From Acetobacter sp. (GTDB lineage Bacteria > Pseudomonadota > Alphaproteobacteria > Acetobacterales > Acetobacteraceae), in assembly GCF_022483985.1 (NCBI RefSeq), contig NZ_JAKVME010000001.1:124001-188000 (forward strand): a DNA stretch of 64,000 nt, in the 5' to 3' direction. The notes under the pieces were generated by a model. That model was not told where the DNA came from and did no database searches. It saw only the letters and a list, made by a program, of their open reading frames with translations. Made by a program: the position numbers and the translations under genes. Positions 60,533 through 64,000 of this stretch are shown here, piece by piece (position 1 is the stretch's first letter; the number at the start of each line of letters is the position of its first letter).

Positions 60533-61017
60533 GCTAAGTGCCCTTTTGAAAATCGTGCCGGGCTGAGGTTGGCGTGTGGAAGCTGCCTCAACTCGATGTG
60601 GAAGTGGCGGCAATCCGTCATTTCCATAAGCCGAACGTATGATCAGTCAAGCCTGTCTGACGACAGAGGACGATTTCCCAAGTTAAATCTAATGCTTCTA
60701 TTTTTTTGAATGATATCAAGATTTATTTGGTAAATATACTTCTGTTTTTATGAATGCTCACTTTTTGATGATTGAAGCTGTGCTGAGCAGATCAAGCGAG
60801 GCTTGTCTATGCGCATTGCATATGCTGAGATATGAATGAAATTCATGTTTTAATGAAATCAAATCATTTTTATTCAACGAAAAGCTGGGGCATAAGGACG
60901 ATGCTTCTGCTTGAAGGCAGAAAAATACCACTGAATAAAAGAAAATCAGAAGTAAAAGTCGGATTTATTTCAATTCCGATCAGCAGGCTCTGATTTCGTA
61001 GAAACAGGATCAATGAC
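60533..61017. other. AT-rich regulatory region upstream of mesX
   Basis: A 485-bp gene-free stretch, AT-rich after 60690. It contains the MetR-like palindrome at 60834-60848 and a looser one (TTGA-ATGATA-TCAA) near 60706-60719. I looked for a SAM-type riboswitch pattern and saw none I could support. Confidence 0.5.
60834..60848. promoter_or_regulatory. MetR-like LysR-type binding palindrome
   Basis: ATGAAT-GAA-ATTCAT is a perfect palindrome containing TGAA-N5-TTCA, the classic MetR consensus. It is 170 bp before the mesX start. The LysR-family gene at 63267 is the natural candidate to bind it; this is inference. Confidence 0.6.
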
Positions 61018-62001
61018 GTGATTGAAGAATCTGCATTCAATATTAGAAGGATTGTATTCGATGAGAATTATCATCCTTCAGAGAATACGCGTCTTACGAC
61101 GAATTTCGCCAATCTGGCGAGGGGGGATAGCCGTCAGGAAAACCTGCGTAATGTTCTGACGATGATTGATAATCGTTTCAATGATCTTGCCTGTTGGGAT
61201 AATTCCAGAAGAGATCGATATTCTATTGAACTTGAAATTATTTCTTTTGAGATGAATGTTGATTCTGGAAATAAGACGGATGCCTTCCCTCTGATTGAAG
61301 TTCTGAATACGAATATTCTTGATAAAAAAACAGGTAAAAAAATTGAAGGAATGACGGGGAACAATTTTTCTTCATATGTAAGGGACTATGATTTTAGCGT
61401 GTTGTTGTTGGAGCATAACAGGAACTTGTCCGCGTTTGATACGCCGCGTCATTTTGGAGAGTTGCACGGGAACCTCTTTAAATACATTATAAATTCAAAT
61501 CTCTATAAGAAAAATTTCAGAAAATATCCGGTTATCTGCCTGAGTGTTTCAAGCAACAGGACCTATCATCGAACCGAAAATCAGCATCCTGTGTTGGGCG
61601 TGGAATATCACCAGCACGAAGATTCGCTGACCGATCAGTATTTTGAAAAAATGGGAATGCAGGTGCGCTATTTTATGCCCGCCAATAGTGTTGCACCCTT
61701 GGCATTCTATTTTTTCGGTGATCTCGTTTCTGATTATTCAGACCTTGAACTCATCAGTGCCATCAGCACAATGGAATCTTTTCAGAAGATTTACCGTCCT
61801 GAAATTTATAACGCCAACTCTGCGGCGGCTGATTGTTATCAGCCAAGTTTGAAGCATCAGGATTATTCAGTAACCCGGATTGTCTACGACCGGGAAGAAC
61901 GCAGCAAGCTGGCTGTAGAGCAGGGAAAGTTTACCGAACAGAACTTCATCAAACCGTATCGGGATAGCCTTGAGCGTTGGTCTGCCACTTATTCCGTTTA
62001 A
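61018..62001 (+). CDS. mesX: MesX (DUF1852), partner of MesD methionine synthase
   Basis: A 327-residue DUF1852 protein. Recognisable segments are IVFDENYHPSENTRLTTNFA, NLARGDSRQENLRNVLTMID and DRYSIELEIISFEMNV. DUF1852 genes are regularly paired with a core-MetE gene, and from genetic studies of folate-independent methionine synthases this pair is named MesX-MesD and works as a unit; its chemistry is still poorly defined. GTG 61018 with AGGAT upstream is the start; no in-frame ATG fits. DNA is AT-richer than average, a hint of transfer. mesD follows after 27 bp. Confidence 0.82.
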   Translation: MIEESAFNIRRIVFDENYHPSENTRLTTNFANLARGDSRQENLRNVLTMIDNRFNDLACWDNSRRDRYSIELEIISFEMNVDSGNKTDAFPLIEVLNTNILDKKTGKKIEGMTGNNFSSYVRDYDFSVLLLEHNRNLSAFDTPRHFGELHGNLFKYIINSNLYKKNFRKYPVICLSVSSNRTYHRTENQHPVLGVEYHQHEDSLTDQYFEKMGMQVRYFMPANSVAPLAFYFFGDLVSDYSDLELISAISTMESFQKIYRPEIYNANSAAADCYQPSLKHQDYSVTRIVYDREERSKLAVEQGKFTEQNFIKPYRDSLERWSATYSV

Positions 62002-62028
62002 TCAACCAGAAAGACAGGGTCATCTATC

Positions 62029-63057
62029 GTGAAAACATTGCTTCCCACTTCTACGGCCGGTAGCCTGCCCAAGCCTTCATGGCTTGCAAAACCTGAGACA
62101 CTCTGGTCGCCCTGGAAATTGCAGGGTGAGGAACTTGTCGAGGGCAAACAGGATGCCTTGCGTCTGACACTGGATGATCAGGATCGCGCGGGTATTGATA
62201 TCGTCAGTGACGGTGAACAGACGCGCCAGCATTTTGTCACGACATTCATTGAACATCTCAGTGGCGTTGATTTCGAAAACCGTCAAACAGTCAGAATTCG
62301 TAATCGTTACGATGCGAGCGTTCCATCAGTCGTAGGTGACGTGACACGGGAAAAACCCGTCTTTGTCGAAGATGCGAAATTTCTACGTAAACTGACGAAG
62401 AAACCAATCAAATGGGCGCTGCCTGGTCCCATGACGATGATTGATACGCTTTATGACGATCACTACAAAAGTCGCGAAAAGCTGGCATGGGAGTTCGCCA
62501 GAATACTCAATCAGGAAGCGAGGGAACTGGAAGCGGCTGGTATCGATATTATCCAGTTCGATGAGCCGGCGTTCAATGTTTTCTTTGATGAGGTAAATGA
62601 CTGGGGTATTGCCGTTCTGGAAAAGGCAATCGAAGGTCTCAAGTGCGAAACCGCAGTTCATATCTGCTATGGTTATGGTATCAAGGCCAATATCGACTGG
62701 AAAAACACTCTAGGGTCAGAATGGAGACAATATGAGGAAATTTTCCCCAAATTGCAGAAATCCAGTATCGATCTGATTTCGCTCGAATGCCAGAATTCTC
62801 GCGTGCCAATGGATCTCATCGAACTCATTCGCGGCAAAAAGGTGATGGTCGGTGCTATTGACGTGGCAACCAGCACCGTTGAGACACCTGAAGAAGTCGC
62901 CAATGTCCTGCGAAAGGCGCTTCAGTTCGTTGATGCGGACAAACTCTATCCTTGCACCAATTGCGGCATGACGCCTTTGTCCCGGAAAGTTGCAACAGGC
63001 AAGCTCAATGCCTTGAGTGCAGGTGCGGAAATCATCCGGAAAGAGCTTGCCGCTTAG
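62029..63057 (+). CDS. mesD: MesD-type core-MetE methionine synthase
   Basis: Cobalamin-independent methionine synthase catalytic domain only (342 residues), without the N-terminal folate-binding half of MetE (which is about 750 residues). Zinc ligands expected in the family are visible: His and Cys in VHICYGYG, Glu in SLECQNS and Cys in YPCTNCGMTPL. DIVSDGEQTR and IQFDEPAFNVFFDE are conserved. The mesX partner immediately upstream points to the MesD subgroup. GTG 62029 is the start. The methyl donor is unknown. Confidence 0.85.
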   Translation: MKTLLPTSTAGSLPKPSWLAKPETLWSPWKLQGEELVEGKQDALRLTLDDQDRAGIDIVSDGEQTRQHFVTTFIEHLSGVDFENRQTVRIRNRYDASVPSVVGDVTREKPVFVEDAKFLRKLTKKPIKWALPGPMTMIDTLYDDHYKSREKLAWEFARILNQEARELEAAGIDIIQFDEPAFNVFFDEVNDWGIAVLEKAIEGLKCETAVHICYGYGIKANIDWKNTLGSEWRQYEEIFPKLQKSSIDLISLECQNSRVPMDLIELIRGKKVMVGAIDVATSTVETPEEVANVLRKALQFVDADKLYPCTNCGMTPLSRKVATGKLNALSAGAEIIRKELAA

Positions 63058-63266
63058 CAGATGTAAGGGGCGCGTACAGCCCGACAAACGTCTTGTGGTT
63101 TCCTTGAATATGATATGCTGTTCACGTTCAGGGAAGCTGTAAGAAACGTTGCTTTCATACTGTATTCCTGCAAAACTCTTTGGGAAATATGTCAGAAGTT
63201 TTTGTAAGGATTTATAAAAACAAGCGGAAGTGATTATATAAGTCCGATCTGTTTACTGGGTGAAAT

Positions 63267-64000
63267 ATGGGTTTTCTGGAACGCAGCCATCTGACCATCA
63301 TTCGGGAAGTCGCCCGGGAGGGTTCTCTGACGGCTGCAGGAATGCGTCTGCACCTGACTCAACCAGCACTCAGCCATGCTATTCGCAAGATTGAAAACCA
63401 GCTTGGGGTAAAGATCTGGCGACGGGAAGGGCGCTCCCTCGTACTCACGCAGGCAGGTGAGTGGCTGCTGTCTCTGGCGAACCGCCTGCTGCCTCAATTT
63501 GAACTGGCGGAAAAGCGTCTCGAACAGTTCGGCAATGGAGAACGTGGCACGCTCCGTATCGGGATGGAGTGCCATCCCTGCTATCAGTGGCTTCTGAAAA
63601 TCGTATCGCCTTATCTGGAGCGATGGCCAAAAGTCGATGTTGACGTCAGGCAGAAGTTCCAGTTCGGCGGTATCGGCGCCTTGTTCAGTAACGAGATCGA
63701 TATTCTGGTTACCCCTGATCCGCTTTATAAACCCGGCCTGAAATTCATTCCGGTTTTTGATTATGAACTCGTTCTGGTTGTCGGTCCGGAACATCCCCTG
63801 CGTGGGGCACGGTTTGTCGTGCCGGAACAACTGGCAGGCGAAACCCTGATCACTTATCCCGTTCCTCCGGAACGACTTGATATCTACACGCAGTTTCTGC
63901 AACCGGCGGGTATCGGTCCAAGACAGCAGAAACAGATAGAAACGACTGATATCATGCTGGTCATGGTCACACGTGGAAGGGGCGTCGCAGCACTTCCACG
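63267..64000 (+). CDS. LysR-family regulator, MetR-like (3' end outside window)
   Basis: N-terminal 244 codons of a LysR-type regulator; the frame is open at the window edge. The winged helix is LERSHLTIIREVAREGSLTA with AGMRLHLTQPALSHAIRKIE, followed by the ligand domain (LRIGMECHPCYQWLLKIVSP). This ECHPCYQWL segment and the mesX-mesD neighbourhood suggest a MetR-type activator responding to homocysteine. It lies 209 bp downstream of mesD on the same strand. The ATG 63267 follows GGGTGA. Confidence 0.82.
   Translation, partial: MGFLERSHLTIIREVAREGSLTAAGMRLHLTQPALSHAIRKIENQLGVKIWRREGRSLVLTQAGEWLLSLANRLLPQFELAEKRLEQFGNGERGTLRIGMECHPCYQWLLKIVSPYLERWPKVDVDVRQKFQFGGIGALFSNEIDILVTPDPLYKPGLKFIPVFDYELVLVVGPEHPLRGARFVVPEQLAGETLITYPVPPERLDIYTQFLQPAGIGPRQQKQIETTDIMLVMVTRGRGVAALP

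What the first reader, a model, noticed from the sequence alone, without database searches (positions are those of the whole stretch)
61018..64000. mesX-mesD folate-independent methionine synthase with a MetR-like regulator and palindrome
A DUF1852 gene, a truncated core-MetE gene and a LysR-type regulator stand together, and a perfect ATGAAT-GAA-ATTCAT palindrome (60834-60848) matching the MetR consensus lies upstream. The core-MetE lacks the folate-binding half, so its methyl donor is unknown, and what DUF1852 does is largely undefined. In the same window, cobalamin nucleotide-loop genes could support a B12-dependent methionine synthase, so the bacterium may switch between two chemistries. 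The unit sits in AT-richer DNA, which hints at acquisition.
Basis: partly seen in the sequence, partly recalled or inferred. Interest (0 to 1): 0.75.

Follow-up and report, generated by a model that had tools for sequence, protein, structure and literature searches.

The report
B12-free methionine synthase with MetR regulator
An acetic acid bacterium carries a published oxygen-dependent gene pair that makes methionine without folate or vitamin B12, beside a methionine-type regulator and its likely binding sites; a second copy elsewhere in the genome sits with another B12-free enzyme gene and may be part of a mobile B12-independence cassette.

Summary
In detail: mesX (DUF1852/PF08908, 61018-62001), mesD (core methionine synthase, 62029-63057) and a MetR-like LysR gene (63267 to about 64166, cut by the window). 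The palindrome is at 60832-60846, two bases from the stated place. MesX/MesD is a published system (PMC7857596): methionine from homocysteine, needing oxygen but neither methyl-folate nor B12. (1) A second, anciently diverged copy lies on a 558-kb contig with queH, the only metF found and its own metR. (2) The palindrome is half of a two-box operator (21-bp spacing) seen in 25 of 26 chosen, almost all acetic-acid-bacterial, loci. (3) The genome has full-length MetH and QueG (B12 enzymes), no MetE folate domain and no CbiC match, so B12 is probably salvaged. Related gene sets lie on Acetobacter plasmids. The window locus is a new member of a known kind. Most novel reading: mesXD, queH and metR form a mobile B12-independence module; queH lies near mesXD in 11 of 80 named loci (about 0.2 expected under a simple model). 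MesX chemistry stays unsolved; its predicted fold has no confident solved match.

The parts
60832..60846 (.). Box 1: perfect MetR-type palindrome ATGAAT-GAA-ATTCAT
   Evidence: motif as in PMC4239095; counterpart with one mismatch upstream of the C2 copy (L006:10100)
60853..60867 (.). Box 2: ATGAAATCAAATCAT, one mismatch to the MetR motif, start 21 bp after that of box 1
   Evidence: identical 15-mer at L006:10121 upstream of the C2 copy
60889..60895 (+). Conserved GGCATAA, 36 nt after the start of box 2; possible -10 region (inference)
   Evidence: Conserved in the anchored comparison of 26 loci, 23 distinct; the consensus promoter scan did not report a promoter here
61018..62001 (+). mesX (DUF1852, PF08908), required oxygen-dependent partner of MesD
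   Evidence: PF08908 E 6.3e-177, full length; family role from PMC7857596
62029..63057 (+). mesD, core methionine synthase without folate domain
   Evidence: PF01717 and PRK09121; closest solved chain 3RPD, E 1.1e-200; expected zinc ligands H211, C213, E253, C312 and substrate residues S12, E63, D178 present (positions; mapping and by inference)
63267..64000 (+). MetR-like LysR-type regulator, 299 aa, continues about 166 bases beyond the window
   Evidence: Best NCBIfam match MetR PRK15421, 206.8 bits, next 118.5, but curated cut-off 382 not reached

Best explanation
The locus is a MesX/MesD folate- and B12-independent methionine synthase under MetR-type control. MesX, in an oxygen-dependent reaction on an unknown substrate, supplies a methyl group; MesD, a one-domain zinc methyltransferase of the MetE catalytic family, moves it to homocysteine and gives methionine. 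Inferred regulation: when B12 is scarce MetH stalls and homocysteine rises; the MetR-like activator, with homocysteine as co-inducer, binds the two boxes 21 bp apart and switches on mesX-mesD. When B12 is salvaged, MetH does the work and mesXD falls silent. Shown here by sequence: gene identities, MesD functional residues, a conserved two-box operator, MetH present, MetE folate domain and CbiC not found, a second copy on C2. Shown by others in other species: dependence on MesX and oxygen, independence of MetF and B12, strong lowering of a DUF1852 transcript by B12. Inferred: MetR binding, homocysteine as the signal, the direction of the switch, and activity of this copy.
For: Family matches and functional residues. 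mesX and mesD adjacent and in the same order in 80 of 80 named loci. Genetics and complementation in PMC7857596. MetH present, PF08267 absent, CbiC absent. Two-box operator at both copies, in 25 of 26 chosen loci, and a 20- or 21-bp pair in 37 of 99 against mean 0.07, maximum 1, in 200 randomised sets. A metR relative of at least 50% identity in 16 of 19 family or own loci and 31 of 80 named loci. Both copies look constrained: dN/dS about 0.07 (mesX), 0.03 (mesD), 0.05 (metR), with saturated dS. B12 lowers a DUF1852 gene by log2 -8.3 in A. baumannii (PMC12892962, passages). A same-genus genome, G117, has mesXD but no match for MetH, PF08267, QueG or CbiC.
Against: No experiment on this organism. 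The regulator is under NCBIfam's MetR cut-off (206.8 against 382). The two-box pair was not seen in 62 of 99 loci, and 6 of the 7 other Acetobacteraceae loci with metR upstream of mesX showed no site at up to one mismatch. No box was found upstream of metH or between mesD and metR of the window copy. MetR was reported absent from Moraxellaceae (PMC4239095), the family of the B12-repression data, so that result cannot be credited to MetR.
Confidence: 0.85

Rival explanations
1. The window copy is a redundant, decaying duplicate; the C2 copy, with queH, metF and its own metR, does the work.
For: Lower GC (mesX 41%, C2 copy 47%), long branch (0.24 against 0.042), simpler neighbourhood.
Against: Open frame with full-length family score, low dN/dS, and box 1 is perfect here but has a mismatch at C2.
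Confidence: 0.12
2. MesX is not a flavin-dependent oxygenase fed by a neighbouring reductase; it uses a metal, or has an acyltransferase-like fold, to release a methyl group from a central metabolite.
Confidence: 0.3
3. The methyl donor is methyl-folate made by MetF, which stands beside the C2 copy.
For: metF lies in the C2 cassette and in some relatives.
Against: MesD lacks the folate domain; in PMC7857596 mesXD rescued an E. coli metF deletion. MetF is needed for MetH in any case.
Confidence: 0.04
4. The LysR protein regulates something else and the palindrome is chance or serves another factor.
For: Under the MetR cut-off; no binding data.
Against: MetR is the best match by a wide margin; conserved two-box spacing; PF08908 was already predicted as a MetR target in Xanthomonadales (PMC4239095).
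Confidence: 0.1

Closest known systems
MesX/MesD folate-independent methionine synthase (PMC7857596; Acinetobacter baylyi ACIAD3524/ACIAD3523, Sphingomonas koreensis Ga0059261_2928/2929)
   Same: Same two families, adjacent, same order; MesD without folate domain and with the expected zinc and substrate residues; MetH in the same genome.
   Different: No flavin reductase relative found beside it; MetR-like gene and two-box operator adjacent; two diverged copies in one genome, one with queH and metF.
MetR-controlled metE with MetH as B12-dependent alternative, as in enterobacteria (recalled; motif and regulon in PMC4239095)
   Same: B12-independent isozyme with a MetR-type operator, and MetH as the alternative.
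   Different: The isozyme is MesXD, not MetE, and needs oxygen; metR lies downstream in the same direction, not divergent.
QueG/QueH pair of epoxyqueuosine reductases (QueG cobalamin-dependent, QueH not; recalled, papers listed)
   Same: The same logic of a B12-dependent enzyme and a B12-free counterpart in one genome; queH lies in the C2 cassette, queG on C3.
   Different: Another pathway (tRNA modification); not present in the window copy.

Membership tests
MesX/MesD methionine synthase | DUF1852/PF08908 protein | tested here: met
   E 6.3e-177, positions 1-323 of 323
MesX/MesD methionine synthase | Core MetE-type catalytic domain of the MesD kind, next to MesX | tested here: met
   PRK09121 697 bits, cut-off 392; gap of 27 bases to mesX
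MesX/MesD methionine synthase | Zinc and homocysteine-binding residues | tested here: met
   H211, C213, E253, C312, S12, E63, D178 by motif position and spacing; the last two zinc ligands are mapped by eye
MesX/MesD methionine synthase | Oxygen-dependent activity without methyl-folate or B12 | not testable with these tools
   Shown in relatives (PMC7857596)
Full-length MetE | N-terminal folate domain (PF08267) | tested here: not met
   Only PF01717 reported for the protein and no PF08267 match in the whole genome
MetR regulator | LysR-type protein reaching the curated MetR model cut-off | tested here: not met
   Best family match, but 206.8 bits against 382; filed as MetR-like only
MetR regulator | ATGAA-N5-TTCAT site upstream of the target gene | tested here: met
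   60832-60846 perfect, 60853-60867 one mismatch
MetR regulator | Homocysteine-responsive DNA binding | not testable with these tools
   Needs a binding assay

The most novel reading that the evidence does not exclude
mesXD belongs to a mobile B12-independence module. In several lineages mesX-mesD is packed with queH (the cobalamin-free counterpart of QueG), a MetR-like activator and sometimes metF, so that a cell that only salvages B12 gains cobalamin-free versions of both MetH and QueG in one regulated block, with a cobalamin riboswitch in the mesX upstream region of some members. The window copy would be a slimmed version (mesX-mesD-metR) of that module.
Probability: 0.4. Interest if true: 0.6.

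Novelty: new member of a known kind. Interest (0 to 1): 0.4.

Why it matters
The enzyme pair is known, but how it is regulated and spread is much less so. A conserved two-box operator, plasmid carriage and the recurrent neighbour queH make a testable case that bacteria can acquire independence from vitamin B12 as a package, which bears on who needs B12 in the communities where acetic acid bacteria live. A same-genus relative (G117) with mesXD but no match for MetH, the MetE folate domain, QueG or CbiC is a natural test. The methyl donor of MesX remains an open biochemical question.

Tried and rejected

Caveats on counts. At least two strains appear twice (L033/L049 and L039/L088, judged from identical proteins and contig lengths). 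For the deep alignment A2 I gave 73 MesX sequences, not all 99. Two rows (L030, L100) were dropped from the trees as incomplete. The 26 loci were chosen by me (the acetic-acid-bacteria group plus L030 and L041); the one that failed the threshold is L042. The queH count of 14 of 99 leaves out two partial hits (L091, L105); the expectation of 0.23 assumes one queH per 5-Mb genome and independent loci. The queH 'changes' value on the MesX tree (9) was not compared with shuffled labels. Absence of genes in a genome rests on single family searches of assemblies that may be incomplete (G117 is in 190 contigs).

Full report
What is there. On the + strand stand mesX (61018-62001, 327 aa, GTG start), mesD (62029-63057, 342 aa) and a LysR-type gene (63267 to about 64166, cut by the window end). 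MesX matches PF08908 from end to end (E 6.3e-177). MesD matches only the catalytic domain of MetE, PF01717, and best the equivalog PRK09121 at 697 bits; the closest solved chain is 3RPD, which PMC7857596 calls a MesD (section 11 read). Upstream are an aquaporin-family gene and an FGGY kinase, by context glpF and glpK, after a glpD-like gene (names recalled). The palindrome lies at 60832-60846.

What is published. A search for MesD, MesX, methionine synthase and DUF1852 led to PMC7857596 (outline with abstract, passages, sections 11 and 13 read). MesD needs MesX and oxygen and needs neither 5-methyl-folate nor B12; the pair rescues E. coli metE and metF deletions in air. The methyl donor was not identified there. 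A search for later MesX oxygenase work returned only that paper, and a search for every held paper with the word DUF1852 returned 5, of which I saw passages of two and the listing of three; none that I saw is a biochemical study of MesX. In A. baumannii B12 lowers a DUF1852 gene by log2 -8.3 (PMC12892962, passages). Two isolates with MesD appeared to escape nitrous oxide, which inactivates MetH (PMC13059711, passages). The MetR motif, and PF08908 as a MetR target in Xanthomonadales, are in PMC4239095 (passages), which found MetR among alphaproteobacteria only in Rhodobacterales; the MetR-like genes seen here would extend that.

The genome. The window lies at C1:124001-188000 of a 3.7-Mb assembly in three contigs. 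The genus is probably Acetobacter: the same-genus genome G169 has a 49,380-bp contig, the length of an A. ascendens plasmid record that also carries mesD. The genome has one full-length MetH, no PF08267 match, one MetF, one QueG on C3 and no CbiC match, so the corrin ring is probably not made; cobS and cobT in the window fit salvage. A full cobalamin riboswitch on C1 (115 bits) stands before a gene that looks like a TonB-dependent receptor (by eye). A second mesX-mesD pair lies on C2 (558 kb). There the order is mesX, mesD, then on the other strand an unknown 163-aa ORF, queH and metF, then a second metR. Identity between the copies: MesX 74%, MesD 92%, MetR 89%.

Regulation. MetR is the best NCBIfam match of both regulators by a wide margin, though under its curated cut-off. 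Upstream of both copies are two MetR-like boxes 21 bp apart, with GGCATAA 36 nt after the start of box 2. Both boxes (up to 2 and 1 mismatches) are present in 25 of 26 chosen loci, 23 distinct. Over all 99 loci a 20- or 21-bp pair occurs in 37, against a mean of 0.07 and a maximum of 1 in 200 randomised sets, and 31 have a perfect TGAA-N5-TTCA core against a mean of 1.1 and a maximum of 4. The pair was not seen in 62 of 99. In the divergent Acetobacteraceae loci where metR lies upstream of mesX (L032, L037, L038, L040, L043-L045), 6 of 7 had no site at up to one mismatch and L032 a single one. The C2 metF-metR gap has a one-mismatch site; no site with up to 2 mismatches was found upstream of metH.

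B12 riboswitches. A B12-box pattern was found in 9 of 99 mesX upstream regions. I gave 8 of those 9 (not L006) and a related plasmid to Rfam: 8 of the 9 sources had a cobalamin riboswitch there, 92-136 bits; L104 had none. In 7 of the 8 it reads away from mesX: toward a Rieske oxygenase gene in three acetic-acid-bacterial loci that I looked at, and toward a gene that looks like an acyl-CoA hydrolase (by eye) followed by metR in two Rhizobiaceae loci. In one Pseudomonas (L093) it reads toward mesX. On C2 only a sub-threshold remnant is left (27.1 bits, gathering 31.5), and none was found at the window copy. So B12 control of the window copy, if any, would run through homocysteine and MetR; homocysteine as the MetR signal is recalled, with support in passages of PMC4239095.

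Distribution and mobility. PF08908 was found in 17 of 200 family genomes and in 3 of the 4 same-genus genomes shown, own included. In those 17 plus one same-genus genome without it, MetH was found in 17 of 18 (16 over the cut-off) and PF08267 in 4 of 18, two of these as fragments. The exception for MetH, G117, also had no match for PF08267, CbiC or QueG, so MesD may be its only methionine synthase. In the MesX tree (quick method, 97 rows) 24 acetic-acid-bacterial rows group with SH-aLRT support 90, under the tool's mark of 95; the window copy is alone on a 0.24 branch within them, while the C2 copy is nested among Komagataeibacter and other family rows at 97; the K. rhaeticus and G. potus proteins are identical. 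The MesD tree has a 24-row set at 97 holding both copies and puts the window copy nearest Gluconobacter cadivus, so the two genes do not agree in detail. PLSDB holds 26 plasmids that match part of the C2 stretch (14 typed conjugative, 9 mobilizable) and 19 that match part of the window locus (9 and 8); none covers 80% of either query. In the three plasmid regions that I opened, mesX-mesD-LysR stand together with transposase genes within about 5 kb. This supports movement among acetic acid bacteria; it does not show when the window copy arrived.

The neighbour queH. A full or near-full queH lies in 14 of 99 loci, 11 of them among the 80 named ones, where 0.23 would be expected if each 5-Mb genome had one. 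The 80 are the best matches to this MesX group and include related strains, so the excess is large but its number of independent events is not settled. Arrangements differ: antisense behind mesD in acetic acid bacteria, upstream and co-directional in Burkholderia-type loci (metR-queH-mesX-mesD-flavin reductase in L075), downstream in two Pseudomonas. QueH as the cobalamin-free counterpart of QueG is recalled (papers listed). No held paper has DUF1852 and queuosine together, and the main text of PMC7857596 does not mention QueH or queuosine. Against a simple replacement story, 17 of 18 genomes searched, own included, keep QueG, and 85 of 99 loci have no full queH nearby.

MesX mechanism. The AlphaFold2 model is good (mean pLDDT 86.7, pTM 0.88) but has no confident solved relative. 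H150, H190, E196, D102 and C174 are invariant in 73 sequences and are candidates for a metal or catalytic site; I could not place them in space. A flavin reductase relative occurs in 36 of 99 loci but in none of the 33 Acetobacteraceae loci, so a neighbouring reductase is not obligatory. My best guess stays with an oxygen-dependent cleavage of a central metabolite that passes a methyl group to MesD, as the 2021 authors proposed; whether flavin or metal is used is open.

Verdict. The window locus is an intact member of a published system with good sequence evidence for MetR-type control. The part worth pursuing is the second cassette with queH and metF and the wider mesXD-queH association.

Noticed in passing
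L006:10279-15766 (G000:C2): Second mesX-mesD pair with a 163-aa ORF, queH, the only metF found and a second metR; an IS66-type transposase piece lies just beyond.
   Followed up: yes
L006:12338-12829: A 163-aa ORF without a Pfam match lies beside mesD on C2, with relatives beside mesD in L030, L034, L036, L051 and L053; function unknown.
   Followed up: no
L006:9673-9900 (- strand): Sub-threshold cobalamin riboswitch (27.1 bits) overlapping a transposase-like ORF upstream of the C2 mesX; looks like a remnant of the riboswitch that precedes a Rieske oxygenase gene in relatives.
   Followed up: partly
L051:4742-6395, L029:7588-8773, L133:4584-6206: Cobalamin riboswitch followed by a Rieske (VanA_C-type) oxygenase gene, divergent from mesX; why a Rieske oxygenase should answer to B12 is unexplained.
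   Followed up: partly
L070:4678-6705 and L105:4704-6720: Rhizobiaceae: cobalamin riboswitch, then a hydrolase-like gene, then metR, divergent from mesXD; would put metR under B12 control.
   Followed up: partly
L093:6438-7966: Pseudomonas: a strong cobalamin riboswitch (109.5 bits) reading toward mesX, about 345 bases before its start, with a MetR-type site in between.
   Followed up: partly
L030:6621-9270 (G169:C2): A mesX copy on a 49-kb contig is in two pieces about 1.65 kb apart, so it is probably broken by an insert; the same genome has a whole copy on its chromosome.
   Followed up: no
G117 (same genus): Has mesXD but no match for MetH, the MetE folate domain, QueG or CbiC; possibly a B12-free lineage.
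   Followed up: partly
L079: A contig titled Bacillus subtilis SK6B4 carries a MesX nearly identical to that of Pseudochrobactrum (L067); probably contamination.
   Followed up: no
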